The notes under the pieces were generated by a model. The model was given only the letters and a program-made list of their open reading frames with translations. It was not told the origin of the DNA and ran no database searches. Shown piece by piece: positions 15,764 through 40,396 of a stretch of 64,000 bases of DNA. How positions within the stretch are numbered: position 1 is the first letter of the stretch; every line of letters begins with the position of its first letter. This DNA is from Ruegeria meonggei (lineage in GTDB: Bacteria; Pseudomonadota; Alphaproteobacteria; Rhodobacterales; Rhodobacteraceae). The position numbers and the translations under genes are program-made. The stretch covers positions 124,001 to 188,000 of the forward strand of contig NZ_FWFP01000003.1 of the NCBI RefSeq assembly GCF_900172215.1, read 5' to 3'.

Positions 15764-15779
15764 TGGTGCGGTCGAGAAG
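15764..15779. repeat. Left attachment-site repeat (attL) of the tRNA-Leu element
   Basis: The 16 bases TGGTGCGGTCGAGAAG are identical, in the same orientation, to 25425-25440, which form the 3' end of tRNA-Leu. The flanking sequence then differs and no tRNA body follows here. Confidence 0.88.
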
Positions 15780-16008
15780 CATCTAGAACAATCGAACTAG
15801 CGCCGACAACCCCTTATTTTTATGGGCAAAGCGCCCTAGGGCAGACTTCAGGTTTCCCCAAATGTGTGCTGCCCCAAGGCGTATTGTGTGCTGTCGTGCC
15901 TGTCAAGTCACCCATAGGGAACGGTAGTAGGTCACAACCGCATTGCAGCCCCGAAACACTCAACCTAATGTAAAGCGATAGCATCTAACTACTACCAAAA
16001 GCATTTCA

Positions 16009-16908
16009 ATGTCTTACCAGTATATTCTCTACGTCGATGAAGCAGGCGACGATAAAGCACATGACCTGAAACCACATAACCCAGACGGCAACTCAGAGTG
16101 GCTCTGCTTGGGTGGGTACGTTGTGCGCAAAAGCGTGGAGGCTGAGCTAGAGGAAAGAAGGAACGCGCTTCTCAGAGAGATCGGAGGGCAAGACGGGGGC
16201 GTCCTCCACTACCGGAACTACAAGCCACGCAACCGCATAAAAGTCTGCAAGAAATTGGCGACGTATCGTGCAAGAGCTTTTGTCGTATGTTCTTTCAAGG
16301 AGACCATGATTGGACACTCCAATCCCCGCGCAGCTACAGCGGGGGGTGATGAGCGCCAAATCCTTTATAACTTTGTGACCCGATTACTTCTCGAAAGAGT
16401 GACCGAGTTTGTTCACAACGACGCGTTGAAGCAGGGTCACAAAGACCCTGTGTTGAAGATCATAATGGCTAGCCGAAAGGGGCATCATTTTGGTCACTTC
16501 AAAGAGTATGTTCAGACGCTGCTGGAACAAGCCAAGGAAGGCACGACTTACTTGGATACCCGCGAGATCAAGCATGAAGTACTACGGTACGACCAAATTG
16601 AGCGCGCCCCGGCTTCCACGCTTCCCGGCCTCCAACTTGCCGACACCGTAGTTAGCGCGACTTTTCAATCAATCGAACGGTCGTCCCCACATTATTCAGA
16701 CCACCCTGCCCTCCACTTGGAAAACATCGTCGCAAAAAAGAAGCACAGCCCGTGGTTCCCAAGCAAGGCGTCCAATGTGGGAATGACGTTGTATAAGGCC
16801 GCTCAGTTGGTAGATACGCTTTCAGAAGAGCAGTGGAGTTTTTTTGAGACATTCGGCTACGACCGCGCTTTTTTGAAGAAGCTCAGTGAGAAGAAGAAGG
16901 CAAAGTAA
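16009..16908 (+). CDS. DUF3800 domain protein
   Basis: A 299-residue protein beginning ILYVDEAGDD (residues 6-15), the first acidic motif of DUF3800, a family thought to have an RNase H-like fold. Later conserved positions are visible in LKIIMASRKGHHFGHF (about 148-163), YDQIERAPASTLPGLQLADTV (the IQLAD-type motif near 215) and a charged C-terminus. DUF3800 genes are frequent on islands and near restriction systems; no activity is established. It is the first gene inside the left attachment site, 229 bases in. The acidic residues D10, E11 and the later LAD aspartate could form a metal site, which is inference. Confidence 0.82.
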   Translation: MSYQYILYVDEAGDDKAHDLKPHNPDGNSEWLCLGGYVVRKSVEAELEERRNALLREIGGQDGGVLHYRNYKPRNRIKVCKKLATYRARAFVVCSFKETMIGHSNPRAATAGGDERQILYNFVTRLLLERVTEFVHNDALKQGHKDPVLKIIMASRKGHHFGHFKEYVQTLLEQAKEGTTYLDTREIKHEVLRYDQIERAPASTLPGLQLADTVVSATFQSIERSSPHYSDHPALHLENIVAKKKHSPWFPSKASNVGMTLYKAAQLVDTLSEEQWSFFETFGYDRAFLKKLSEKKKAK

Positions 16909-17234
16909 AGCTGATCGGCCATATCCAACTCAGATAAGAAATCTCAGCGCGCTGTGAGTTCCAACCACCACCGGTACCGTCGGCTCGGCACTATGATCTG
17001 CAAACGTGGTTGCTGATTGATGCCGCAATTATTTCGGCAAAAAAATCTGAGTGCCCGAGATTATACATAGTGCCGCGCAGACCCCCCGGTGGGGCCACAT
17101 CAGGACCAACTCTCTCCACCTGCAAGAAATTCCCTTTAATACAATAAAAACAATGAGTTGACGATTGTCTCGGCATGAATCATCTAGGCGTTGCATCGCA
17201 CTGATGCAGTACCACCAAGAATAGGAATAGTAGA
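16909..17234. other. Non-coding gap with a 10-bp inverted repeat
   Basis: A 326-base stretch in the island without a convincing gene. CGGCACTATG at 16986-16995 is the exact reverse complement of CATAGTGCCG at 17066-17075, with 70 bases between. A short TGCCG/CGGCA hairpin lies within. The repeat could be a recombinase or regulator site, or the stem of an RNA. Confidence 0.45.
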
Positions 17235-17402
17235 ATGATCGTCTTTGACTTTTGCCTCGGCCCCTTTGACTTGCTCGTCGAGCGTGAGACCCGTTCAGTC
17301 CCCTTCAAGGTGACCCGTGAGGGACCGGGCGAGACTTTCGTTAACGTTGGCCGCCACCGCCTGACGTTCACGAACCACAGAAGGTGCCCCAAGGCGTCCT
17401 GA
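17235..17402 (+). CDS. Hypothetical small protein (55 aa)
   Basis: An ATG at 17235 opens a 55-codon frame ending in TGA at 17402. AGGA lies eight bases before the ATG, a well placed ribosome binding site. The product starts MIVFDFCLGPFDLLVERETR and continues with FKVTREGPGETFVNVGRHRL, a balanced, charged sequence consistent with a small beta-rich domain; the C-terminus has CPKAS. It matches no family I recognise. It precedes the serine recombinase by 143 bases on the same strand and could be a small regulator or accessory protein. Coding status rests on the start context only. Confidence 0.45.
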   Translation: MIVFDFCLGPFDLLVERETRSVPFKVTREGPGETFVNVGRHRLTFTNHRRCPKAS

Positions 17403-17477
17403 ACGCATGGGTCTCATTTGACCGGAGTGTAACAAGACAGGTGCCAACCCCTCAGATACTGTCTCATTTAAGTGGGG

Positions 17478-17521
17478 TTGACATTTAAAGCGCACTTTCT
17501 TACTTAACCTAAAGAGGTTAA
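17478..17521 (+). promoter_or_regulatory. Promoter/operator region of the serine recombinase gene
   Basis: A consensus -35 box TTGACA (17478-17483) is followed by a perfect inverted repeat TTAACC-TAAAGA-GGTTAA at 17504-17521, in the -10/start region about 25 bases before the ATG at 17546. The arrangement suggests a repressor-controlled promoter. Confidence 0.5.
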
Positions 17522-17545
17522 TGATACACACTCGGAGACAGGCAC

Positions 17546-18097
17546 ATGCTAATTGGATACGCGCGGACGTCGACAGCAGACCAGATCGCAGGGTTTGAGG
17601 CGCAGCAGCGTGAGTTGAAAGACCATGGTTGTGAGAAGGTGTTTGCTGAGCAGGTCAGTAGTGTGAAGCAGAGAGACCATCTTGAGGCCGCCATAGACTT
17701 TTCCCGTGAAGGTGACACTCTGGTGGTCACTAAGCTGGACCGTCTGGCGCGCTCGGTCCCTGACCTCATCGATATTCGCAAGCGGCTTTCAGCCAAAGGC
17801 GTTCGACTACACATCATGAACATGCCAATGATGAACGATAGCGCCACTGCACAGATGCTTGAGACAATCCTCGGGGCCGTTGCTCAGTTTGAACGTGAGG
17901 TGATGCTTGAAAGGCAGCGTGAAGGGATTGCGAAGGCCAAGGCCGAGGGGAAATTCAAAGGGCGCCCAGCTATGGACGAGACTAAGGCCGCAGCCATTCG
18001 TGAGGCGTTCCAAAATGGTGAGAAGCCAACCCAGATCGCAAGGGACTATGGGGTCAGTAGAGCGACGGTTTACAGGCTTGCCAAAGAGGCGGCGTAA
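17546..18097 (+). CDS. Serine recombinase, resolvase/invertase family
   Basis: A 183-residue site-specific recombinase. GYARTSTADQ at the N-terminus holds the catalytic serine (residue 9), KLDRLARS near residue 67 supplies active-site arginines, QFEREVMLERQREGIAKAKAEGKFKGRP is the long E helix linker, and the C-terminal 40 residues form a helix-turn-helix (TQIARDYGVSRATVYRLAK). Length is normal for Hin/Tn3-resolvase enzymes, which invert or resolve DNA at short inverted sites. A good GGAGACAGG site precedes the ATG. It acts in addition to the tyrosine integrase at the other end; the DNA segment it works on is not evident. Confidence 0.93.
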   Translation: MLIGYARTSTADQIAGFEAQQRELKDHGCEKVFAEQVSSVKQRDHLEAAIDFSREGDTLVVTKLDRLARSVPDLIDIRKRLSAKGVRLHIMNMPMMNDSATAQMLETILGAVAQFEREVMLERQREGIAKAKAEGKFKGRPAMDETKAAAIREAFQNGEKPTQIARDYGVSRATVYRLAKEAA

Positions 18098-18845
18098 GAC
18101 GCGGATTTTGTAACCCGCAGGCCCCTTGTTTTACTGCCTAAATGGATAGCTGGCGGTGACTTGAGTGACCCCAGAGGCAAGTTGACCCCCATACGAGCCC
18201 CCACAGAACGATCAGCTAGCGGCAGTCATCCCCCATAATAGCCCTACCTGACGGCCGGACAGGGTCAATTCACCCACACTATAGCCGTACACAGAATTTC
18301 CGAATTGCCTCGTTTCGTGGAAGTGCGAGGCGATGTCAGCATGGCGTTATCACCGACCGACAAGGAAGGCTGATAGCAGACCATCTGTGGTGGGGCGTCC
18401 TGTGTGCTGGATGTCTCACCCAAGCATTCCCCGTGAGTTGCCCCGTGGGTTTCCCTGAAGCGGAACCTATCGGGCACTTCATGTGTATTTCCGATCTTTG
18501 TTGTCTTGAGATGGCGGGGCTTAGGTCCCGTCAGATCATTCCAGCGCGTCTCTGCATCAGGGCGTCATCCGTTAAAAATCCACCTTGCACACAGTGTAGC
18601 ACGGGGTGGTGTCGGTAAAAGGTCCCTCCGCATATGTAATAGTAACCCTACAGGCTATCCTTAAGGTGCGTCGACCTTCGTCTCCTTCATCAAAATCAAC
18701 CCAATAAAGTCTTCCCCTGAAGGTAATGCAGTTTCACTGCCAACACGTTCAGGTGCCCCCCATGGCTCGCTCCGCTCGTGGAGAGACCAAGTGATGATGA
18801 TCGTCATTCATCACACCACAATCCCATCGTAAGGAACCCTCGAAA
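18098..18845. other. 748-base island segment without a convincing gene
   Basis: No frame here combines a ribosome binding site, a recognisable product and a normal length. A six-base stem (GCCTCG/CGAGGC, about 18308-18330) and imperfect palindromes near 18793 are the only structures seen by eye. It lies between the recombinase and the zinc-finger/RNase HI run, so it may contain a promoter, a recombination site, or an untranslated RNA. Confidence 0.4.
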
Positions 18846-19304
18846 ATGAACATCGTCACATCCCTTCAGGGGAACCTTAAGGCGTGCACTAGGTGCAGCC
18901 ATACGTTTGAACCTAGAAGGTCCGACCAAAAGTACTGCTCAGTCAAATGCAAGAAGGCGGGGAGTAAGAACAGCACAAGAGGTGCCCGTGCCGTGGAGAA
19001 CAAGGTGCGGTCTAGGACGCATTATATTCGCGCTATGGACTTGGAACGCATGGTCTACTCCGTCGCTCCGTCAGAACGCCTCGGCGTCATGCAGCAAATA
19101 CTGACTTACATCTGCGTGGATGCTGGTCTCAGGAACATTCTGTGTGACCTGAGGCTATTGCGAGAGCCGCCCAGAATGTCGGGGCGTAAGAACATCGCTC
19201 AAGCCGCCAGCAGCTACACCCGTAAGTTCTATGGTCTATCCATCCAAACGTATGTCCGCAGGGTGCAAGCCGGGAATGAGATTGAAGGCATTGCGATAAC
19301 GTAG
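18846..19304 (+). CDS. Zinc-finger protein of unknown function (152 aa)
   Basis: A 152-residue protein with CTRCSHTFEPRRSDQKYCS and VKCKK in residues 14-38: two CxxC/CxxxC-type half-sites forming a small treble-clef-like zinc finger seen in many phage and plasmid proteins. The rest is basic and helical (TRGARAVENKVRSRTHYIRAMD, SYTRKFYGLSIQTYVRR), as in a nucleic-acid binding domain. AAGGAACC precedes the ATG. It heads a same-strand run with the 118-residue protein and RNase HI. I do not recognise the family; a replication or transcription accessory role is a guess. Confidence 0.68.
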   Translation: MNIVTSLQGNLKACTRCSHTFEPRRSDQKYCSVKCKKAGSKNSTRGARAVENKVRSRTHYIRAMDLERMVYSVAPSERLGVMQQILTYICVDAGLRNILCDLRLLREPPRMSGRKNIAQAASSYTRKFYGLSIQTYVRRVQAGNEIEGIAIT

Positions 19305-19378
19305 CGGGGGCATAATCACCCCAACCAGCGATCAGGACGTCCATAACGGGCGTCTTTATTCATTTTTGGAGAAACACA

Positions 19379-19735
19379 ATGGAACTGAATGAACAGAACC
19401 GCGTGGCTGACAAACGGTTACGCCGTATCGGCTATGACAAGCGACGAGCATTCACGAAACGCCTGAGGTCAACCGCACGTGCCCGTCTGGGCCACGATAA
19501 GATTGATGACCAGCTTGCCCCTTGGGCCGACCGACCAAGCCATTGGGCCAGCATGAGAGTGCGCCCTGAAGTGGTGGTTGCAGTCAACACCGTGCGTGAG
19601 CGCATGGTCAAACAGTTGGAGCGTGAGGTCTCACAGAGCGAAGCGCTTTCATTCTTGGTTGAGCTTGGCGTGGTCGCCATGACCGACCGCAAACAAACCA
19701 CAGCCCCCAAACGAACGAAGAAGAAGCCCAAATGA
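19379..19735 (+). CDS. Basic hypothetical protein co-translated with RNase HI
   Basis: A 118-residue, strongly basic protein. Residues 1-60 are rich in Arg/Lys (KRLRRIGYDKRRAFTKRLRS), a middle helix holds VNTVRERMVKQLEREVSQSE, and the tail ends KQTTAPKRTKKKPK, so nucleic-acid binding is likely. The 75-100 region (SEALSFLVELGVVAMTD) resembles the C-terminus of small ribbon-helix-helix-like proteins, but this is uncertain. GGAGAAAC precedes the ATG. Its stop overlaps the rnhA start (ATGA at 19732-19735), so the two are translated together. Family unknown. Confidence 0.7.
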   Translation: MELNEQNRVADKRLRRIGYDKRRAFTKRLRSTARARLGHDKIDDQLAPWADRPSHWASMRVRPEVVVAVNTVRERMVKQLEREVSQSEALSFLVELGVVAMTDRKQTTAPKRTKKKPK

Positions 19736-20193
19736 CAAACACTGAAATCACTATTCACACTGATGGCTCATGCCTTGGAAACCCCGGTCGCGGCGGCTGG
19801 GCTGCAACTCTCCGACGATACGAAGGCGGCAAAGAGGTCAAGAAGCGGTCCATCAATGGCGGCGTCAAACACACCACCAACAACAGGATGGAAATGACAG
19901 CCGCCATTCAGGGCCTAAAAAAGATCAAGAAAGGCGAAAAAGCTCAGATCACCGTTTACTCTGACAGCCGGTTGCTCATCCAAGGAATGACTGATTGGCA
20001 CCACAAATGGCAGACTAACGGCTGGCGTAAAGCGGGCGGTAAGCCCGTCGAAAACCGCGACCTTTGGGAGGAACTACTCACAGTGACTGACGAGCTTAAC
20101 GTGCAATGGGAATGGGTTCGGGGCCACGCAGGAGACCGAAGAAATGAAGAAGTAGACGCAATGGCTGCTGACGCTGCCTACAAAGCGGCCTGA
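19732..20193 (+). CDS. rnhA: Ribonuclease HI
   Basis: A 153-residue RNase HI that cuts the RNA strand of RNA-DNA hybrids. The four metal-binding residues are all present: D11 (HTDGS), E54 (NRMEMTAA), D78 (VYSDSR) and D142 (EEVDAMA), and the helper histidine is in VRGHAGD (H132). Length equals the chromosomal enzyme (about 155), so it should be active. Because it lies in the island with two unknown nucleic-acid binding proteins and is translationally coupled to one, it is probably an additional copy serving element replication or an RNA-linked function, not the housekeeping gene. Confidence 0.93.
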   Translation: MTNTEITIHTDGSCLGNPGRGGWAATLRRYEGGKEVKKRSINGGVKHTTNNRMEMTAAIQGLKKIKKGEKAQITVYSDSRLLIQGMTDWHHKWQTNGWRKAGGKPVENRDLWEELLTVTDELNVQWEWVRGHAGDRRNEEVDAMAADAAYKAA

Positions 20194-20228
20194 GTTCGGG
20201 GCATATTGTCCCGAGAACACCACGTTTA

Positions 20229-20250
20229 CCCCGGCGGTATTCTTCCGGGG
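20229..20250. terminator. Hairpin between convergent rnhA and HNH genes
   Basis: CCCCGG (20229-20234) and CCGGGG (20245-20250) form a perfect six-base stem with a ten-base loop. A weaker CGGG/CCCG hairpin lies about 35 bases before it. There is no clear T run, so it is a possible bidirectional terminator only. Confidence 0.4.
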
Positions 20251-20303
20251 CAGATGGGTTTGGCATAGAGGCTCCAAAGGCTCGTTTGCAGTGGCACGAC
20301 GAG

Positions 20304-21686
20304 TCAAACCGTATCGCTCAGGCGCTTCTTCAAAACCTCCGCTAAGCCTTCTTTGTCGTTCGCTGAGTGCAACGCACGGTGGCAGTTTGGACAGACAGCA
20401 GCGCAGTTTTCTACGGTGTCGGGACCACCCTCTGCTAGAGGCAATATGTGGTGTGTTTCGAGATAACCTGTGCCATCTGGTCTGCGGAAAGGTGCTTTTT
20501 GTTGACACAGTTCGCACACGCCATTTGCCCTTTGCTGTGTGTACGCAACGACGCGTGGGTCGCGGACGTAGACCGTCCCGAGTGCTAGCTCTTTCTTTGG
20601 TGACGGATTACCAGCAGGCGGTTCTGAGAGCATTTCAGGCCGCGAAAGTATAGCCTTGGTCTTTTTCTCCAACTCATCCCGGTTGTCAGTCGGCATTGCC
20701 AAGTCGAAATCCGCGAGCCGTTTCTTCGCGGTTTCAACGACTTCATTTGGGAATTGCTCGAAGTGATCGACTACAATTTGTTCGTAAGACTTACCGGATG
20801 CCGATACTTCATCGAACCCACTGGCACGAGAGCGCACGCGCTTTTCAATGACATGCACAGCACCGTGTTTCCGAATTTGGCTCGGTTCTCGACCAAGCCC
20901 CGGGAACCGTCCGAAGTCACGTTTGGTATCCTGCCAATCAATCAGAACTTCCGCTAGCTGGTTCTCCAATGGCTTATCGCTTGCCAGTAGCTCCCGTAGC
21001 ACTTCTGATTTTGGCAGCGGCCTTTCGACTTTCGGAACCTGCCCCCCGCTTTCACGAAAAGCCTGAATGCGGTTTCTTATGTCATACGCAGCCAACAATA
21101 ATTCGCGCTCTGGCAACGTAAAGACTTCAAGTTCAACGTCACGAACACGCTCGTGCCCAAGCCCAATACCTTTGTAATTTTCATCATACTTCCGCAACTC
21201 CATAAGCTTCATGTAAACACCGTTTGGGTTACGGAAGGTGTCGTTGCCGCTAAGCCCCTGCATAACTGCTGTCGCACGTATTTCGTCCGCGAGTGCAGTC
21301 AACGGTTTAGATGTTTTGCTGGGAATACTCGGCGCGTGTCGAAGATAGAACTCAGTTGCGAGGATAAGTTCGTCGCGCGACCAGTCCGGATTTCGTGTTG
21401 GCGGCGGATTCTCAACCACTTCAAATCTTAGGTTCTCTAAGACCTGCACGGCGCGCCCTTGCCCACCAGATGAGTTCTTAGCATTAAGCGGAACAAATCC
21501 CGGCCCAACATATCCATGCGCGGCCCCCACGATAGCCTTAGAATCGTAGTATTTCCCGTTGTGGAGAAGGTGGTACTTCTTCGAACTACCGAAGCCATAC
21601 TTTTTGAGAAACCTGGTTTTGCCAAGCTCGTCGTATTCGTCACATGCGGCTATGATTGATGCTGTAGTAATGTCAGATAAACTCAT
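20304..21686 (-). CDS. HNH endonuclease with McrA-like (ScoMcrA-type) N-terminal region
   Basis: A 460-residue multidomain nuclease. Residues 1-65 (TTASIIAACDEYDELGKTRF, KKYHLLHNGKYYDSKAIVG) resemble the N-terminal head domain of ScoMcrA, which cuts phosphorothioated or methylated DNA. Residues 100-200 (NPDWSRDELILATEFYLR) form a second module common in McrA-type enzymes. The C-terminal HNH domain has CELC (391-394), LETHHILPLAEGG (H412, H413), N427, CPNC (432-435) and HRALH, so zinc and catalytic sites are intact. It is transcribed toward rnhA and diverges closely from the RadC-like gene. A type IV restriction role against invading DNA is the best guess; the modification recognised is unknown. 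Confidence 0.8.
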   Translation of the reverse strand: MSLSDITTASIIAACDEYDELGKTRFLKKYGFGSSKKYHLLHNGKYYDSKAIVGAAHGYVGPGFVPLNAKNSSGGQGRAVQVLENLRFEVVENPPPTRNPDWSRDELILATEFYLRHAPSIPSKTSKPLTALADEIRATAVMQGLSGNDTFRNPNGVYMKLMELRKYDENYKGIGLGHERVRDVELEVFTLPERELLLAAYDIRNRIQAFRESGGQVPKVERPLPKSEVLRELLASDKPLENQLAEVLIDWQDTKRDFGRFPGLGREPSQIRKHGAVHVIEKRVRSRASGFDEVSASGKSYEQIVVDHFEQFPNEVVETAKKRLADFDLAMPTDNRDELEKKTKAILSRPEMLSEPPAGNPSPKKELALGTVYVRDPRVVAYTQQRANGVCELCQQKAPFRRPDGTGYLETHHILPLAEGGPDTVENCAAVCPNCHRALHSANDKEGLAEVLKKRLSDTV

Positions 21687-21808
21687 GACGACATCTTGCT
21701 GCTAGCGTGACGCAAAGCAAGACCAGATCGCGGAAATCCGTTCATTTACGTATCGTTAACCAACGTCCTGCCAATTTCTACGGAAGGAGTTCAACAGCGG
21801 GCGCGGGT

Positions 21809-22747
21809 ATGAAAAGCCAGATCATAGACCACCTCAAAGGGGTGATAGCGGGAGACAGAAAGAAGTTCGGCAAGCTAGTCAAATACGACGGGCAATACGG
21901 CTTCTCAGAGGATGCGATGAAGGGGCTTAAAGACCTCGACGCGCGAATTCCCCCACCGGACGCAATCAGCGAACCAGCCCATTCACCCAGTTATGTTTAT
22001 CGTGACCGTCTATCGCCAAAGAACGCAGCCGGGGGTGGCCTCGTTACGGGTGATGACGGAGCCAAACGACCTCACTATTGGGGGCACCGCCAGCGCCTAA
22101 GAGATCGCTTCTTAAAAGGCGGTCACCGACCAATGCCCGAGTACGAACTACTGGAACTCCTTCTGTTCAACGCCATCCAAAGAATTGACGTTAAACCTCT
22201 TGCGAAACGTCTACTGGCAGAATTTGGCGACCTAAACGGGGTCATTGCAGCATCAAGGCATCGAATACTCCAAGTCGATGGCGCAAACGACTGGGTATAC
22301 TATCACCTCAGAGTGGTCGAAGCGTTTGGGCACAGAATGGCACAGGCTCAGGTATTGAAGCGGGATGTGGTTTCATCTTGGGAAGCCTTGGTCACCTACT
22401 GCAGGACCGCAATGGCGCACCGAGAGGTGGAACAGTTCCGTGTCCTGTATCTGGACCGCAAGAATGTTCTGATAGCTGACGAGGAACAGGCAAAAGGTAC
22501 TGTTGACCATGTGCCGGTGTATCCCCGCGAGATCGTCAAACGCGCTCTAGAACTGAACGCGAGTTCCCTCATCCTCGTCCACAACCATCCTTCAGGTGAC
22601 CCTTCGCCGAGTACTTCGGACGTCCTTATGACAGAGCGCATTCAGGATGCTTGCGACACAATGGGCATCACCGTCCACGACCACGTTATTGTCGGAAAGA
22701 AGGAAGAGTACTCGTTCAGCACTAACGGGTTGCTAACAAGAGGTTAA
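21809..22747 (+). CDS. RadC/JAB-domain protein
   Basis: About 312 residues from the ATG at 21809; a GTG at 21707 would give 346 but lies only 20 bases from the divergent HNH start, and neither has an ideal ribosome binding site. The middle (HYWGHRQRLRDRFLKGG, ELLELLLFNA) is the RadC helix-hairpin-helix region, and the C-terminus has the JAMM metal motif LVHNHPSGDPSPSTSD. RadC-like proteins are common on islands and plasmids; despite the name their biochemical role is unsettled and they are not confirmed repair enzymes. The N-terminal 100 residues are unusual for the family and have no recognised domain. Confidence 0.88.
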   Translation: MKSQIIDHLKGVIAGDRKKFGKLVKYDGQYGFSEDAMKGLKDLDARIPPPDAISEPAHSPSYVYRDRLSPKNAAGGGLVTGDDGAKRPHYWGHRQRLRDRFLKGGHRPMPEYELLELLLFNAIQRIDVKPLAKRLLAEFGDLNGVIAASRHRILQVDGANDWVYYHLRVVEAFGHRMAQAQVLKRDVVSSWEALVTYCRTAMAHREVEQFRVLYLDRKNVLIADEEQAKGTVDHVPVYPREIVKRALELNASSLILVHNHPSGDPSPSTSDVLMTERIQDACDTMGITVHDHVIVGKKEEYSFSTNGLLTRG

Positions 22748-22796
22748 CGGCATACCTGACAGTTAGACCTTTGCCCTATCGAACAGTTTTCCAATC

Positions 22797-23192
22797 ATGA
22801 AACGCATACTTACAGCCGCCTCTTTCATCCTCGCAACAACTGCTCTGGCGGGTGGCACATACGTCCGAGATGCCGACACCATCGTTGTCGATGGCACTCC
22901 TGTGCGCTTAAACGGCGTCGATGCGCCTGAGTTGGGCACTCGATCTGGTCGGAATGCTAAACGGTGGATGGTCAACTATCTTCGCGGGAAGACTGTAACG
23001 TGCGACTTGAACGGAGAACGTACCTATGACCGCTGGGTCGGTGTTTGCTATGCGGATGGTCAGGACGTGGGTGCCGCTGTGATTGCCGCTGGCCACGCAC
23101 TAGATTGCCCTCGGTACTCAGGTGGCAGATACAGGAAGTTGGAAACAGCCGCAGCCAAATCACGGCTGAAACGTGCGGGATATTGCAGATAG
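22797..23192 (+). CDS. Exported thermonuclease-family (SNase-like) protein
   Basis: A 131-residue protein with an N-terminal signal peptide (ILTAASFILATTALAGG, residues 4-20) and a staphylococcal nuclease-like core. Key positions match the active enzyme: D27/T28 in DADTIV, R37 and D42/E45 in VRLNGVDAPE, and R79 in YDRWVG. It should be a small secreted or periplasmic Ca-dependent nuclease. It is shorter than S. aureus nuclease (149 mature residues), lacking part of the C-terminal helix. It heads a same-strand run with two small membrane proteins that use TTG and GTG starts. Confidence 0.87.
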   Translation: MKRILTAASFILATTALAGGTYVRDADTIVVDGTPVRLNGVDAPELGTRSGRNAKRWMVNYLRGKTVTCDLNGERTYDRWVGVCYADGQDVGAAVIAAGHALDCPRYSGGRYRKLETAAAKSRLKRAGYCR

Positions 23193-23205
23193 AAGGACCC
23201 TCAAA

Positions 23206-23397
23206 TTGAGAAAATCAAGACTGCTAGGAGCCGCCGCTGGGGGGCTGCTCGGGTTTTTAGTGGGCAGCGGTACAGGCATTGTCGGCGGGCCATTTGTCGC
23301 CATAGCCGGAGTTTCGGTTTTCACCTCTATTGGGGCTGGTTGGGGGTTCAGTGCAGGGCCTGACTTAGCCAACTGGTGGGCCAAGCGAAATTCGTAA
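23206..23397 (+). CDS. Glycine-rich small membrane protein
   Basis: A 63-residue protein, almost wholly hydrophobic and glycine-rich (LLGAAAGGLLGFLVGSGTG, FVAIAGVSVFTSIGAGWGFS), with two likely membrane spans and a glycine-zipper look. The TTG at 23206 was chosen because AGAAGGA sits eight bases before it; starting further upstream would overlap the thermonuclease gene. Small glycine-zipper proteins can insert in membranes and form oligomers, but no function can be assigned. It follows the thermonuclease by 13 bases. Confidence 0.6.
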   Translation: MRKSRLLGAAAGGLLGFLVGSGTGIVGGPFVAIAGVSVFTSIGAGWGFSAGPDLANWWAKRNS

Positions 23398-23423
23398 TTC
23401 AGGCAAACGAGAAGGAACCACAG

Positions 23424-23888
23424 GTGGCAGTCCCTAACGAAGCCCAGCATCAAAGGAACTTTGAAGAGTTCCAGATGATAAACGAAAAAGCTATTGATAC
23501 CTCAAATATTGTACTGAAAAGTGCGCTGCTTATCAACGGTGGTGCGGCTGTTGCCGTGCTTGGTTTTGTTGCCTCGATAGTTAAAGACAACGGCGACTTA
23601 ACGGCACTATTGGAAGGTGTTGCGTTTGCACTGATGTACTTCGCGTGGGGCGTTGCTGCTTCGGTTATTGCGTTAGCTTTGGCCTATTTGACCCACTACT
23701 CAATGCTGGCGATCTTGAATAAGAGAACTGAGGGGAAAAGTGATCGCCTGAGTCGTATTGCCAATGTTTCATCTCACGTTTTGGCATTTCTAGCCACAGT
23801 TTCGGCGATAGGGCTTTTTGTGCTCGGAGCCTATCAGGTCAAAGCGACGATCTCATCCGATGCTTTGGCATCCTCGCTGATGGAATAG
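23424..23888 (+). CDS. Hypothetical membrane protein (154 aa)
   Basis: A 154-residue protein with a soluble N-terminal helix (QHQRNFEEFQMINEKAIDTS) and three to four hydrophobic segments: ALLINGGAAVAVLGFVASIV, LLEGVAFALMYFAWGVAASV with ALALAYLTHY, and VLAFLATVSAIGLFVLGAYQ. The GTG at 23424 is preceded by GAAGGA at seven bases; an upstream GTG at 23376 overlaps the previous gene and lacks such a site. Similar small membrane proteins accompany mobile elements. I do not recognise the family. Confidence 0.68.
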   Translation: MAVPNEAQHQRNFEEFQMINEKAIDTSNIVLKSALLINGGAAVAVLGFVASIVKDNGDLTALLEGVAFALMYFAWGVAASVIALALAYLTHYSMLAILNKRTEGKSDRLSRIANVSSHVLAFLATVSAIGLFVLGAYQVKATISSDALASSLME

Positions 23889-23986
23889 AGGTAGCCCACC
23901 ACCAGGCAAAAACGCCTTGGTCAGAAAGTATTTGGGTTACTTTGTATTTTCACCCCTCGGCTCTTCTCTAGCGAGGAAGCGGTATT

Positions 23987-25363
23987 TCAAAGCCCAGCCT
24001 TAACGCCCCACCTAGCGAACTCTCTGAGCCGAGCGTCACGTCCACCATAAGTATTTTCAGCAACTGACTGAGCGGAATGCCCTAGATACCCGTGACGTAC
24101 TTCTACAGGTGCCCCTGCATCCCTCAGCTTATCGCTTGCCCTGTGGCGCAGCCCGTGGACTTTCATGCGCTTGTCGTCAGTGTTCTTTCTGACCGCTTTC
24201 ATCAGAGCCGCAGAGGCAGCCGTAGGTCCTCCGTCACGGCCATAAGAATGGAACAGAGGCTCCTCACCCTTGCGCCCCTCTACACGCGCCCTGAGGGATT
24301 CCCTGAGGCTGTCTGAGGCTATTGGAACGTACCTGTCACTATTGCTGTTCTTGATGCCGTTGATTTCGTTCGGAGTGATCAGGATAGACGGGGTTTCCCC
24401 TTTAAGGTCAACATCGCTGATGCGCAGACCACACGCTTCTCCTAGGCGCATTCCAGTACCTTTCAGTACCCGCCACATATCAGGAAGGTCTTTGCTTCGA
24501 CCGCCCTCTAAGGTCATCTGCACAGCGTCGACAACACTGTCTGGGAGCGGGACGTTCTTGTCCAGTGAGCTTACTTGTTCCTTCGGCCACGACAGTCGCT
24601 CGAAGGGGTCGCGACCCGCCGGTATCTCCAGTTCCCTGACTGCATGCCGATATGCGGCGGCTACAATAATCATCTCACGCTGACACGACTTGAGTGCCAG
24701 CGGTTTCCCGTTAGCTTTCTTAAGCCCTAATAGGTGGTCCTTGAAGGCGCGCGCCGTCAGTCGGTCGATACTCTCAATAGTCACATCGTCCAGAGATTTC
24801 CTTAAGGCGTCACTTAGTCGGCCAAAGGTGCGGTCAATTCTGACCATCTCTTTCCGGTCATCAGCAAGCCCGTTGTCTTTCGCATAAATGTCCCGCATGT
24901 CAGCCAGCGTTGGCTTCGGAGGCTCCTGATCAGGGTTCAGGACTGCAGCTACAACTTCGGGGGCCTCTCCACGGGCAGCCAGACCGTGCCCCACTATCCC
25001 ACGGGTCCAACTATCGTCAGGGTCCAATCCTTGAACGCCTGCCATGTAATTCTCTGCAAGGCGCTGGGCGTCTATGAACTTCTGAGTGGCCGACCGAGTG
25101 TCAACCTCAGGGTGTTGCCTAAGGGTGTCCTCAACGATGGCGTCAAAATTTCTCAGGTGAAACTGGTACTCGCGCTGAAAAGCTGCCCCATCACGAGCCT
25201 TAATATGCTTCTGGTAAGCGTCCTCACCACGAATTTCACGCACTCGCTTTGGCCACCTTCTGCGAAAGCGCCATTGAGTTTCGCTGATTGCGTCGACGTA
25301 ACTGATCTTCATTCTAAGGGCCATTGTGTGCTGTCCGTGTGTGTTGTTTGCGTTATGCGACAC
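23987..25363 (-). CDS. Tyrosine recombinase/integrase of the tRNA-Leu element
   Basis: A 458-residue phage-type integrase. The C-terminal catalytic domain has all expected residues: R306 in TGMRLGEACG, H403 and R406 in HGLRH, H429 in YLGHS and the nucleophile Y439 in NTYGG. An N-terminal arm-binding region and a core-binding SAM-like domain (LADMRDIYAKDNG, about 150-260) precede it. It lies 61 bases from tRNA-Leu and is transcribed away from it, as typical for tRNA-integrating islands, and would catalyse insertion and excision at the 16-base core. The start is the first ATG; an internal ATG (residue 14) is possible. Confidence 0.93.
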   Translation of the reverse strand: MSHNANNTHGQHTMALRMKISYVDAISETQWRFRRRWPKRVREIRGEDAYQKHIKARDGAAFQREYQFHLRNFDAIVEDTLRQHPEVDTRSATQKFIDAQRLAENYMAGVQGLDPDDSWTRGIVGHGLAARGEAPEVVAAVLNPDQEPPKPTLADMRDIYAKDNGLADDRKEMVRIDRTFGRLSDALRKSLDDVTIESIDRLTARAFKDHLLGLKKANGKPLALKSCQREMIIVAAAYRHAVRELEIPAGRDPFERLSWPKEQVSSLDKNVPLPDSVVDAVQMTLEGGRSKDLPDMWRVLKGTGMRLGEACGLRISDVDLKGETPSILITPNEINGIKNSNSDRYVPIASDSLRESLRARVEGRKGEEPLFHSYGRDGGPTAASAALMKAVRKNTDDKRMKVHGLRHRASDKLRDAGAPVEVRHGYLGHSAQSVAENTYGGRDARLREFARWGVKAGL

Positions 25364-25424
25364 ACTCGGAAAATGCTGAATGCCCTTGTTTATAAGGCCG
25401 AAAACTAACTGATCAAGCTAGTTC

Positions 25425-25440
25425 TGGTGCGGTCGAGAAG
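25425..25440. repeat. Right attachment-site repeat (attR), 3' end of tRNA-Leu
   Basis: Identical to 15764-15779. It covers the encoded CCA end, the acceptor 3' strand and part of the T arm of the tRNA gene, so integration leaves the tRNA functional. Confidence 0.9.
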
Positions 25441-25511
25441 ACTCGAACTTCCACGGGTGTTACCCCACAGCGACCTCAACGCTGCGCGTCTACCAATTCC
25501 GCCACGACCGC
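25425..25511 (-). tRNA. tRNA-Leu (GAG anticodon)
   Basis: An 87-base gene with a GCGGTCG/CGACCGC acceptor stem, encoded CCA, a long variable arm typical of leucine tRNA, and an anticodon arm CAGCG-TTGAGGT-CGCTG whose loop gives the GAG anticodon reading CUC (and CUU by wobble). The 3' end is the integration target of the adjoining element. Confidence 0.95.
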
Positions 25512-38058: not shown

Positions 38059-39255
38059 ATGGCAGACCAGTGTGACATCCTGATTTCCGGCGGCGGAATC
38101 GCCGGACTGACCGCTGCAGCGGCTTTTGGCACCGCCGGGTTCGACGTGATCTGCGTCGACCCGACCCCACCGATCACCGAACGCGATGTCGACGGGTCCG
38201 ACCTGCGGACCACTGCCTTTCTGCAACCCGCGCATGGGCTTTTAGAGCAATGCGGGCTGTGGCAACGGCTGGACGCACACGCGGCCCCCTTGCAGATCAT
38301 GCGCATTGTGGATGCCGGCGGAGATGTGCCGGAACCGCGCGTGGTGCGTGATTTCAACGCGGCTGATATCTCGGACCAGCCCTTTGGCTGGAATCTGCCC
38401 AATTGGCTTTTGCGGCGCGAGATGGTCGCCCGTCTGGCCGAATTGCCGAATGTCGATTTCCGTCCTGGCACCGGCACCGCCAGCCTGTTCACCCGCACCG
38501 CCGAAGCCCGCGTGGGCCTGAGCGATGGCAGCCGCATTCACTGCAAGCTGGTGATCGCCGCAGATGGCCGCAATTCGCCCATGCGCGAGGCCGCGGGGAT
38601 CAATGTCCACACCACGCGCTATGGCCAAAAGGCGCTGGCTTTTGCCGTCACACATCCCATCCCGCATGACAATGTTTCGACCGAAATTCACCGCTCGGGC
38701 GGGCCCTTCACCCTGGTCCCCCTGCCAGACTGGCAGGGGCAGCCGTCTTCGGCGATTGTGTGGATGGAGCGCGGACCCCGCGCGGTTGAGTTGCTCAACA
38801 CCGAGCCCGAAGTGTTTGAGGCGCTGATGACCGAACGGTCCTGTGGGTTGTTCGGACCGTTAAAACTGGCCTCGCGCCGGACCATCTGGCCGATCATCAG
38901 CCAGTCAGCAGAACGTCTGGCTGGCGAGCGAGTCGCGCTAATGGCCGAGGCCGCCCATGTGGTGCCGCCAATTGGAGCCCAGGGATTGAACATGTCGCTG
39001 GGCGATCTGAGCAGTCTGCTGGAACTGGCGCAGGCCCGTCCTGAAGGTCTGGGCGATGCGCAGATGCTCGATGCCTATCACAAAGCCCGCCATACCGAGA
39101 TCGAGATGCGGGTCAAAGGCATCGATCTGTTGAACCGCGCCTCGATGATCGAGGCGCGGCCGTTAAGGGACGTCCGGGCAATGGGGCTAAATGCGCTCTA
39201 TTCTCTACCGGCTGTTCGCAAGACCTTGATGCAAATGGGCCTCGGCGTACGCTAA
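38059..39255 (+). CDS. UbiH/UbiF/COQ6-type FAD-dependent monooxygenase
   Basis: A 398-residue flavin monooxygenase. The N-terminal FAD site CDILISGGGIAGLTAAA, the mid-protein DGRNSPMREAAGI and the C-terminal GAQGLNMSLGD motifs define the ubiquinone hydroxylase family, which adds hydroxyls to the ubiquinone ring. ATG at 38059 follows AGAGG; an upstream TTG is in frame but less likely. It is not next to other ubi genes, so UbiH versus UbiF versus UbiI is not decided. It converges with the aminotransferase gene. Confidence 0.87.
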   Translation: MADQCDILISGGGIAGLTAAAAFGTAGFDVICVDPTPPITERDVDGSDLRTTAFLQPAHGLLEQCGLWQRLDAHAAPLQIMRIVDAGGDVPEPRVVRDFNAADISDQPFGWNLPNWLLRREMVARLAELPNVDFRPGTGTASLFTRTAEARVGLSDGSRIHCKLVIAADGRNSPMREAAGINVHTTRYGQKALAFAVTHPIPHDNVSTEIHRSGGPFTLVPLPDWQGQPSSAIVWMERGPRAVELLNTEPEVFEALMTERSCGLFGPLKLASRRTIWPIISQSAERLAGERVALMAEAAHVVPPIGAQGLNMSLGDLSSLLELAQARPEGLGDAQMLDAYHKARHTEIEMRVKGIDLLNRASMIEARPLRDVRAMGLNALYSLPAVRKTLMQMGLGVR

Positions 39256-39268
39256 GGCCCGAACGGTT

Positions 39269-40396
39269 TCACAGAACCTGATCCAGCACGCGCTTGAGCC
39301 GCCCGATAGTGCCGTCAACGTCATACAATTTGTCCAAACCGAACAGACCAAGGCGGAAGGTGCTGAACCCTTCAGGCTCATCACATTGCAACGGCACACC
39401 TGCTGCGATCTGCATGCCCAAAGCGGCAAACTTCTTGCCATTCTGAACATCCGGGTCCGCCGTATAGCTGACCACGACACCCGGCGCGCCAAATCCGCCT
39501 GCCGCAACCGAAACGATGCCTTTGTCCCGCAGCATCGCCCGCACACCATCGCCCAACGCCCATTGGGCGTCACGCAGCTTTTCAAACCCATAATCGCGGG
39601 TCTCGACCATCGTATCGCGGAATGCCTTCAACGCATCTGTGGGCATGGTCGCGTGATACGCATGCCCGCCATTTTCATAGGCCTGCATGATCTGCCGCCA
39701 CTTCTTCAAATCAACGGCAAAGCTGTCCGAAGTAGTCTCCTCCAACCGCGCCTCGGCACGCTCAGAAAGCATGACAAGGCCCGCGCAGGGCGATGCACTC
39801 CACCCTTTCTGGGGCGCCGAGATCAGAACGTCCACACCGGTGGCCTTCATATCGACCCAGGCACAACCCGATGCGATGCAGTCCAGCACCATTAACGCCC
39901 CAACCTCATGCGCGGCGGTGGCCATCGCGGTCACATAGGCGTCCGGCAGTATCAGACCAGCCGAGGTTTCCACATGCGGGGCAAAGACAACATCCGGGCG
40001 CTGTTCCCGGATCGTCGCCACGACCTCTTCGATCGGGGCCGGGGCAAATGGTGACGGGCTGGAGTTTCCGGTCTGCCGCGCCTTCAGAACCGTTGCCGAC
40101 GCCGTCAACCCTCCGGATTCGATGATCTGGCTCCAACGGTAGGAAAACCACCCGTTCCGAACCACCAGCACATTGGCATTGCGCGCAAACTGCCGGGCGA
40201 CAGCTTCCATGCCGTAAGTGCCGCCGCCAGGAATGACCGCAACACCGTCCGCCTGATACACATCGCGCAACATACCCGAGACATCCCGCATAACCTGCTG
40301 AAACTGGGCGGACATGTGGTTCAGTGACCGATCCGTGAAAACAACCGAAAATTCTTCGAGCCCGTTGGGATCAATAGTCTCCAAAAGCGCCGGCAT
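39269..40396 (-). CDS. Class V PLP-dependent aminotransferase (alanine/serine-glyoxylate type)
   Basis: A 375-residue fold-type I aminotransferase. GGGTYGMEAVARQ near residue 60 binds PLP phosphate, VLDCIASG carries the PLP-contact Asp, and APQKGWSASP has the Schiff-base lysine (about residue 185). It resembles alanine- or serine-glyoxylate aminotransferases. AAGGACACATC precedes the ATG. It diverges from a UTRA-type GntR regulator, with repeated TTGACGC motifs between them, so ligand-controlled expression is likely. Substrates are not determined. Confidence 0.88.
   Translation of the reverse strand: MPALLETIDPNGLEEFSVVFTDRSLNHMSAQFQQVMRDVSGMLRDVYQADGVAVIPGGGTYGMEAVARQFARNANVLVVRNGWFSYRWSQIIESGGLTASATVLKARQTGNSSPSPFAPAPIEEVVATIREQRPDVVFAPHVETSAGLILPDAYVTAMATAAHEVGALMVLDCIASGCAWVDMKATGVDVLISAPQKGWSASPCAGLVMLSERAEARLEETTSDSFAVDLKKWRQIMQAYENGGHAYHATMPTDALKAFRDTMVETRDYGFEKLRDAQWALGDGVRAMLRDKGIVSVAAGGFGAPGVVVSYTADPDVQNGKKFAALGMQIAAGVPLQCDEPEGFSTFRLGLFGLDKLYDVDGTIGRLKRVLDQVL

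What the first reader, a model, noticed from the sequence alone, without database searches (positions are those of the whole stretch)
15764..25440. Small tRNA-Leu integrated element with nuclease-rich cargo and no phage structural genes
A 16-bp direct repeat (one copy being the tRNA-Leu 3' end) brackets 9.7 kb holding tyrosine and serine recombinases, RNase HI, an HNH nuclease, RadC-like and thermonuclease-like proteins and a DUF3800 protein. The size, lack of capsid/terminase/relaxase and concentration of nucleic-acid enzymes fit a satellite or defence island. The ends, tRNA and integrase are seen directly; the function is inference.
Basis: partly seen in the sequence, partly recalled or inferred. 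Interest (0 to 1): 0.85.

Follow-up and report, generated by a model that had tools for sequence, protein, structure and literature searches.

The report
Likely satellite of T7-like phages
A 9.7-kb piece of mobile DNA inserted in a tRNA gene of a marine Ruegeria bacterium carries a short non-coding signal that matches the place where T7-like viruses cut their DNA for packaging, so it is probably a parasite of such viruses that brings its host interchangeable antiviral genes.

Summary
A 16-bp tRNA-Leu(GAG) repeat brackets 9,661 bp (15764-25424); all 8 congener empty sites I fetched carry one copy. It belongs to a family of tRNA-inserted islands in Ruegeria and other genera. They share a modular backbone (55-aa protein, serine recombinase, zinc-finger or BRO-like slot, 118-aa protein, RNase HI) and carry interchangeable cargo: a type IV HNH-like nuclease here, DRT2, Lamassu or Mrr elsewhere. 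The new finding is non-coding. A ~70-bp motif (17029-17113) is in 15 of 17 long loci with backbone genes, and in several T7-like phages between the terminase gene and the right end. In T7 the same 13 bases end 4 nt before the terminal repeat, followed by the same kind of hairpin. A profile trained only on Ruegeria copies has its best hit in the T7 right end at this junction (0 of 300 shuffles). Repeats resembling phage RNA-polymerase promoters follow the recombinase gene. I conclude it is probably a satellite of T7-like phages that mimics their concatemer junction (about 0.6). Packaging and helper were not shown; no T7-like terminase was found in 54 Ruegeria genomes.

The parts
15764..15779 (+). 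distal attachment-site copy (16-bp direct repeat)
   Evidence: homology to sister islands L048, L100 and L101 starts exactly here
15863..15893 (+). two arm-type repeats (TGTGTGCTG at 15863 and 15885), putative integrase arm sites
   Evidence: 4 copies in element, 0 in the rest of the window; repeats of this type also near both ends of L048, L050, L100, L101
16009..16908 (+). DUF3800 protein (cargo)
   Evidence: Pfam PF12686 E 5.2e-13
17029..17113 (+). concatemer-junction-like motif, candidate packaging (cut) site; AAAAATCTGAGTG at 17041-17053, then CCCC...GGGG dyad
17235..17402 (+). conserved 55-aa protein of unknown function
   Evidence: 69-87% identical in 6 aligned relatives; 7 of 54 Ruegeria genomes, own included; no Pfam/PHROG hit
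17546..18097 (+). serine recombinase (resolvase/invertase type)
   Evidence: Pfam Resolvase E 5.6e-36; 93-96% identical in four relatives
18175..18294 (+). 3 copies of a ~20-bp direct repeat (spacing 43-44 bp here) resembling T7-like phage RNA-polymerase promoters; 3-7 copies in several relatives
18287..18387 (+). strongly conserved non-coding block with GCCTCG/CGAGGC stem-loop (stem not perfect in L045)
   Evidence: alignment of 4 islands
18846..19304 (+). zinc-finger protein with helical C-terminal part (slot held by a BRO-like gene in some relatives)
   Evidence: weak NinG hit below cut-off; alignment A5; AF2 pLDDT 85.6
19379..19735 (+). 118-aa backbone protein, possibly a ribbon-helix-helix regulator (my reading by eye)
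   Evidence: 79-90% identical in three relatives; no family hit
19732..20193 (+). RNase HI
   Evidence: NCBIfam PRK00203 171.9 bits vs cut-off 160
20304..21686 (-). HNH endonuclease, type IV restriction-like (defence cargo)
   Evidence: Pfam HNH E 8.8e-12; PADLOC mREase_IV 99.1 and 69.4 bits
21707..22747 (+). RadC-family protein
   Evidence: TIGR00608 243 bits
22797..23192 (+). SNase-like nuclease with an N-terminal hydrophobic stretch (signal peptide by eye)
   Evidence: Pfam SNase E 1.2e-7
23376..23888 (+). membrane protein of unknown function (by eye)
   Evidence: ORF with hydrophobic stretches; no hit above a cut-off (Pfam TraQ at E 0.084 ignored)
23987..25363 (-). tyrosine integrase
   Evidence: Pfam Phage_integrase E 2.8e-16; 86-92% identical in five congeners
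25325..25333 (+). arm-type repeat on the integrase side
25425..25440 (+). proximal attachment-site copy = 3' end of tRNA-Leu
25425..25511 (-). tRNA-Leu(GAG), the insertion target
   Evidence: Rfam tRNA 51.7 bits

Best explanation
The 9,661-bp element is an integrative phage satellite. SHOWN by comparison: it inserts at the tRNA-Leu(GAG) 3' end, carries a full-length integrase, shares a modular backbone with other tRNA-inserted islands, and carries interchangeable cargo. SHOWN by sequence: it carries a ~70-bp non-coding motif that matches the right-end / concatemer-junction region of T7-like (Autographiviridae) phages. INFERRED: when a T7-like phage infects, the phage RNA polymerase reads the promoter-like array. 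The element excises through its integrase and is copied as a concatemer, by an unidentified route. The helper's polymerase and terminase then recognise the junction mimic at 17029-17113, cut there, and package the element into helper particles. The HNH nuclease and the other variable genes would protect the host and element against competing phages.
For: Insertion: 8 of 8 fetched empty sites have one repeat copy. Motif: 15 copies from several genera align (A7). A profile of 10 Ruegeria copies scores 23-41 bits in the five A7 members from other genera; the reciprocal 5-copy profile scores 14-46 bits in the ten Ruegeria copies. Motif and backbone genes have the same orientation in the loci compared. 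Phages, picked from the TerL hit list before the motif was looked for in them: 3 of 10 right-end stretches reached 10 bits (TRX32-1, CRP-804, CRP-118), downstream of TerL. In 8 whole genomes (3 not examined before) the best hit of the full profile lies between TerL and the right end, plus strand, in 5; of 200 shuffled genomes one scored 14.6 and the next 9.9. IMG/VR contigs L144, L154 and L181, found with motif-derived patterns, hold it 0.6, 2.5 and 0.6 kb downstream of a T7-like TerL. T7: AAAAATCTGAGTG at 39761-39773 ends 4 nt before the 160-bp terminal repeat (39778, checked) and is followed by TTCCCCCATAGGGGG; the Ruegeria-only profile's best hit in the 3.4-kb T7 right end is 39755-39829, 7.3 bits, 0 of 300 shuffles as high. 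[quoted passage not shown] Array: a promoter matrix made only from phages TRX32-1 and RHEph01 has its best site inside the array in 6 of 12 islands scanned and third-best in the window. Sister island L101 encodes a T7-type internal virion protein (phrog_805 E 1.2e-23; 36-37% to RHEph01 and TRX32-1).
Against: No T7-like TerL was found in 54 Ruegeria genomes, though that search had no positive control; no helper is known. Integrase, serine recombinase and zinc-finger queries found no copy of the element among IMG/VR contigs (these scans need exact peptide patterns). In RHEph01 the motif lies 650 bp before the recorded 512-bp terminal repeat, not at its edge. Hits in CRP-118 (10.9) and CRP-403 (9.8 bits; 2 of 200 shuffles reach that) are weak; CRP-361, CRP-114 and HTVC011P have none with the full profile, and with the non-Ruegeria profile CRP-118's best hit lies elsewhere. 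Promoter-matrix scores exceed the best of 30 shuffles only in L046, and the matrix does not pick the array in L050, L140, L109, L100 or L101. Two zinc-finger-bearing loci (L108, L110) and island L049, with the same integrase and tRNA, lack the motif. No replication initiator is recognised. The element is a quarter of a T7-like genome, so packaging would need concatemers or small heads.
Confidence: 0.6

Rival explanations
1. A tRNA-inserted defence island descended from a decayed temperate T7-like prophage. The junction motif, the promoter-like repeats and the internal virion gene in sister islands are relics, and today it moves only by its integrase plus generic transduction or recombination.
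For: Temperate T7-like phages exist: the TRX32-1 record says induction from lysogen and has a tRNA-Leu beside an integrase-sized ORF; 9 of 10 roseobacter Autographiviridae carry an integrase (passages of PMC11092137). L101/L048 carry phage-like genes.
Against: The motif is in 15 of 17 long loci with backbone genes, across several genera, while the one recognisable virion gene was seen only in L101 and, as part of a longer ORF, L139. Relics would decay; the motif keeps invariant positions. Apart from L101's virion protein and a distant integrase match, the element proteins tested had no convincing relative in the 17 phage records or stretches compared.
Confidence: 0.17
2. The motif and array are bait: the element draws the T7-like RNA polymerase or terminase to itself to trigger or deliver anti-phage defence, without being packaged (a defence island with phage-activated promoters).
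For: Promoter-like repeats upstream of backbone genes; defence-type cargo here and in L045, L100, L101; no copy of the element found among IMG/VR contigs.
Against: A polymerase sensor would need a promoter only, not the conserved cut-site region. The motif is kept in L048 and L101, where no array was detected.
Confidence: 0.12
3. A mobilisable island moved by conjugation, with the motif acting as an origin of transfer.
For: One compact conserved cis-acting motif with a dyad in each member is what an oriT mimic would also look like.
Against: No relaxase among the scanned proteins; the motif recurs at a fixed position in phages, whereas the one plasmid DNA search that included it showed no match to it among the 20 of 78 records listed.
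Confidence: 0.05
4. The resemblance to phage right ends is coincidence: a short A-run plus a C-run/G-run hairpin arises often.
For: Scores in named phages are modest (9.8-21.1 bits, and 3 of 8 genomes without a hit); T7 scores 7.3 bits.
Against: Position and strand agree in phage after phage, shuffles seldom reach the scores, and T7 shares 13 bases directly beside its terminal repeat.
Confidence: 0.06

Closest known systems
[quoted passage not shown]
   Same: Small (prototype 6,110 bp), integrase, direct repeats at a chromosomal site, no capsid-remodelling genes, defence cargo including DRT; satellite of a virulent phage (passages of PMC10803314)
   Different: PICMI are searched for by int, alpA and primase and sit at fis; here no AlpA or primase hit, tRNA targets, and a T7-like packaging-junction motif
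T7-like phages (Autographiviridae), concatemer junction and phiOR promoter region
   Same: The motif, and a promoter between TerL and the right end (T7 phiOR, annotated at 39229), have their likeness in the element
   Different: No phage RNA polymerase, terminase, capsid or tail gene was recognised in the element
Tycheposons / VEIMEs (marine satellites named in a passage of PMC11389934; details recalled)
   Same: Marine, tRNA-inserted, tyrosine recombinase, exchangeable cargo (recalled)
   Different: Different hosts; no T7-like junction motif known to me for them
P4-like satellites and PICI
   Same: Hotspots of antiviral systems (reported for P4-like satellites; listing and abstract start of PMC9122126)
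   Different: No P4/PICI marker family among the Pfam hits; helper type differs

Membership tests
Site-specific integrative element | tRNA 3'-end direct repeats, integrase, empty sites in relatives | tested here: met
Phage satellite | lacks own structural and packaging genes | tested here: met
   15 ORFs scanned against Pfam and 11 against PHROGs: no head, tail or terminase gene; one hit of the serine-recombinase HTH to a terminase-small-subunit profile at E 0.0097 ignored
Phage satellite | cis-acting packaging site shared with a helper | tested here: inconclusive
   motif shared with T7-like phages at the right end, including beside T7's terminal repeat; recognition by a terminase not shown
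Phage satellite | helper-dependent induction and transfer | not testable with these tools
   needs infection experiments
Phage satellite | resident helper prophage in the genus (supporting, not defining if the helper is lytic) | tested here: not met
   0 of 54 Ruegeria genomes with a T7-like TerL; search had no positive control
PICMI | int + alpA + primase | tested here: not met
   no AlpA or primase hit; definition from passages of PMC10803314
Integrative mobilizable element | relaxase and/or oriT | tested here: not met
   no relaxase hit; oriT not testable
Defence island | known defence genes clustered | tested here: inconclusive
   one PADLOC defence match here, the HNH (10 proteins); DRT2, LmuA/LmuB, Mrr in sisters; activity untested

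The most novel reading that the evidence does not exclude
A previously undescribed family of satellites that parasitise T7-like (Autographiviridae) phages in Roseobacter-group bacteria. They carry a mimic of the T7-type concatemer junction, the cut site recognised by the transcription-coupled T7 packaging machine, and arrays of promoters for the helper's single-subunit RNA polymerase. Defence systems are swapped in and out of a shared backbone that sits at different tRNA genes under different integrases.
Probability: 0.55. Interest if true: 0.92.

Novelty: new variant of a known kind. Interest (0 to 1): 0.8.

Why it matters
Known satellites exploit lambda-, P2-, ICP1- or siphophage-type helpers (passages of PMC11389934 and PMC10803314, and recall). 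Autographiviridae are among the most abundant marine phage families (abstract start of PMC11092137), yet the rows listed by literature searches named no satellite of them. If true, it explains how a class of small defence-carrying tRNA islands spreads in Roseobacter bacteria. It also gives a sequence signature to find more of them and a natural handle on T7 packaging-site recognition, which is tied to transcription.

Tried and rejected
Phage relatives by DNA: none for 15764-23700. Zinc-finger protein in phages or plasmids: none; 118-aa protein in plasmids: none. IMG/VR scans: integrase 0 loci, serine recombinase 2 loci (57% and 29%, recombinase only), zinc-finger 1 locus (38% over 42 residues), the 246-aa protein of L101 none; a first degenerate motif pattern gave 0. 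I first took the repeat array for replication iterons or a centromere; I dropped that as the leading reading when the phage promoters turned up, but it is not excluded. I considered that the serine recombinase inverts the backbone, because its orientation relative to the integrase differs between L045 and L102; I did not search for crossover sites specifically. The 55-aa protein could not be folded usefully (pLDDT 49.6). The zinc-finger model matched no solved fold (best E 0.89); in BFVD no match reached E 0.001, the likeness being a short zinc motif of HNH/NinG-like proteins. A T7 class II terminator string (recalled) is not in the T7 stretch fetched, so I do not use it. Rfam: only the tRNA, plus a poplar-1 hit far below its cut-off.
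Full report
WHAT IS THERE. The window is G000:C19:124001-188000; the four named records found with near-identical integrases are all Ruegeria, so I call the genus Ruegeria. Two copies of TGGTGCGGTCGAGAAG, at 15764 and 25425, bracket 9,661 bp; the right copy is the 3' end of tRNA-Leu(GAG). Genes: DUF3800, a 55-aa ORF, serine recombinase, zinc-finger protein, 118-aa protein, RNase HI, HNH nuclease (PADLOC type IV restriction model, 99 bits), RadC, SNase, two small hydrophobic ORFs, and the integrase.

INSERTION IS REAL. The 8 of these that I fetched each hold a single repeat copy. Five further congeners of 53 carry an integrase 86-91% identical: G016, G455 and G462 with the repeat (15 of 16 bases sought) at both ends, G001 with one copy found, and G002 about 51 kb from its tRNA flank. 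Other DNA of about 7.8-10 kb occupies the same site in G020, G036, G004, G019 and G028; I compared it with the element only. Nine-base repeats TGTGTGCTG, likely integrase arm sites, occur 4 times in the element and nowhere else in the window, and recur near both ends of sister islands.

A FAMILY WITH A MODULAR BACKBONE. Backbone pieces recur at other tRNA genes under other integrases: tRNA-Thr(GGT) in L045, L102, L140, L111; tRNA-Arg(CCT) in L046, L139; tRNA-Thr(TGT) in L107, L109; and tRNA-Leu(GAG) again in L141, from another genus, in the order integrase, 55-aa gene, recombinase, BRO-like gene, 118-aa-like gene, RNase HI. Serine recombinases are 93-96% identical across four congener loci. 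Counting the own genome, the 55-aa protein is in 7 of 54 Ruegeria genomes and 4 of 394 family genomes, the zinc-finger protein in 5 of 54 and 15 of 394, the 118-aa protein in 5 of 54. Cargo differs: HNH/RadC/SNase here, DRT2 in L100 (E 2.4e-133), LmuA/LmuB in L045, Mrr in L101; of the ten sister proteins scanned, six gave no PADLOC hit. The backbone runs towards the integrase in some islands and away in others; L045 and L102, same type of integrase and same tRNA, are opposite. End repeats give sizes of 9.36 (L045), 9.66 (window), 9.71 (L102), 14.66 (L101), 15.26 (L048), 15.67 (L100), 6.93 (L139), 9.92 (L141), 7.24 (L107), 6.85 (L109) and 9.21 kb (L111); none was found for L140, L046 and L110.

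THE NON-CODING MOTIF. Aligning backbone starts showed a boundary at about 17020 and a conserved stretch just inside it. Fifteen copies were aligned (A7); by construction they match their own profile. Two more loci, L047 and L106, were found in addition, while 17 other islands or integrase loci tested had none. Of 17 long loci with at least one backbone gene, 15 have the motif; L108 and L110, known only by the zinc-finger gene, do not. L049, same integrase and tRNA but no backbone gene found, lacks it. A profile from the 10 Ruegeria copies scores 41.2, 41.0, 28.5, 25.4 and 23.4 bits in the five A7 members from other genera; the reverse also works (14-46 bits).

THE PHAGE LINK. A pattern for the motif's GC-rich part matched 39 IMG/VR stretches. 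Three matched the full profile (E 4e-8, 1e-3, 3e-3), although the A-rich half was not in the pattern. Two of these, L144 and L154, place it 0.6 and 2.5 kb downstream of a T7-like terminase gene; L175 has no such gene in the stretch read. A second pattern, with both halves, added L181, 0.6 kb downstream of such a gene. I then took named phages from the TerL hit list. Of ten right-end stretches, TRX32-1 (21.1 bits), CRP-804 (18.9) and CRP-118 (10.9) had it downstream of TerL; the other seven had nothing above 4.5 bits. In eight whole genomes, three of them new, the best hit lay right of TerL, plus strand, in CRP-804, CRP-118, CRP-403 (9.8), TRX32-1 and RHEph01 (18.6), and not in CRP-361, CRP-114 or HTVC011P. 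Among 200 shuffled genomes the highest scores were 14.6 and 9.9. With the Ruegeria-only profile CRP-114 and the CRP-125 and Lo5R7ANS stretches also have weak best hits there (8.3, 8.3 and 5.0 bits), RHEph01 drops to 6.4 at the same place, and CRP-361 and HTVC011P still lack it. With the non-Ruegeria profile HTVC011P gains one right of TerL (10.1) while the best hit of CRP-118 moves elsewhere (3.9).

PHAGE T7 ITSELF. The T7 right end has phiOR at 39229, past the terminase gene, and AAAAATCTGAGTG at 39761-39773. The 160-bp terminal repeat starts at 39778, four bases on (first and last bases of the record compared). The same 13 bases lie at 17041-17053 of the window; among the other loci checked in that call only L139 has all 13, the rest vary. 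In T7 a C5-G5 hairpin follows inside the repeat; in the element CCCCCC..GGGG follows at a similar distance. The Ruegeria-only profile's best hit in the 3.4-kb T7 stretch is 39755-39829 (7.3 bits; 0 of 300 shuffles). [quoted passage not shown] The motif is therefore best read as the T7-type concatemer junction.

THE REPEAT ARRAY. Directly after the recombinase gene lie direct repeats of about 20 bp, mostly 43-47 bp apart: 3 in the window, 6 in L045 and L102, 7 in L047, 3 in L046, about 3 in L139, 1 in L050 after a different recombinase. Phage polymerase promoters, inferred as repeated 20-mers in RHEph01, TRX32-1 and CRP-804 (7, 8 and 6 copies), look alike: AATTACCCCTCCCTTAAGG in a phage, AATTCACCCCCACTATAGC in the islands, and AATTACCCCCCACAATAGG in phage contig L144 just after TerL. 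A matrix from the two Rhizobium phages puts its best site in the array in L102, L045, L047, L046, L141 and L139 (6 of 12 islands scanned), third in the window, and not in L050, L140, L109, L100 or L101, of which L140 and L109 have pairs of diverged repeats. Only in L046 does the score exceed the best of 30 shuffles. The reverse scan, island repeats against phages, picks few of the phage promoters and not as top hits in the whole genomes. This is good for location and weak for strength.

INTERPRETATION. Mobile island: about 0.97. Motif homologous to T7-type right-end junctions: about 0.9. Satellite use of it: about 0.6. Array as phage promoters: about 0.6. Steps not shown: excision, replication, helper, packaging, defence. 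Against: no T7-like TerL in 54 Ruegeria genomes, no copy of the element found among IMG/VR contigs, and the RHEph01 motif not at its recorded repeat edge. Four copies of 9.66 kb make 38.6 kb, close to the 39-43 kb of these phages; other islands do not all divide so neatly, so this is only a hint.

NOVELTY. The rows listed by searches of the held open-access library name no satellite of T7-like phages; longer hit lists were not read to the end and subscription papers are not covered. PICMI are the nearest small marine satellites but are defined by int, alpA and primase (passages), which are not met here.

Noticed in passing
L100:12709-14238: Sister island at the same tRNA-Leu carries a DRT2 reverse transcriptase near RNase HI, plus DUF1254/DUF1214 and peptidase M15 genes.
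   Followed up: partly
L045 and L102: Same type of integrase and tRNA-Thr site but the backbone lies in opposite orientations, with a serine recombinase inside the flipped part: possible invertible module.
   Followed up: partly
L101:2152-2757 and L139:9089-11191: T7-type internal-virion-protein-like sequence; in L139 it forms the start of a 700-aa ORF between the array and RNase HI.
   Followed up: partly
L101:1825-9611 and L048: Block of phage-like and unknown genes (one protein with phrog_2467 and Bacillus/Acinetobacter phage relatives) conserved at about 81% DNA identity between two tRNA-Leu islands.
   Followed up: partly
window 17235-17402: 55-aa protein family with invariant EGPGE and VGR motifs in seven aligned copies, no family hit; low-confidence beta-rich model.
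   Followed up: partly
L050 / L051 (G002:C24): An element with the same integrase lies about 51 kb from the tRNA-Leu flank, suggesting a second insertion stacked at the site.
   Followed up: no
L141:11639-15373: Cargo of the other-genus tRNA-Leu island: a ParA/MinD-like 619-aa protein and an apparent MqsA-type toxin-antitoxin pair (by eye).
   Followed up: no
window 18287-18387: About 100 bp of non-coding DNA with a GCCTCG/CGAGGC stem, little changed in four islands; function unknown.
   Followed up: partly
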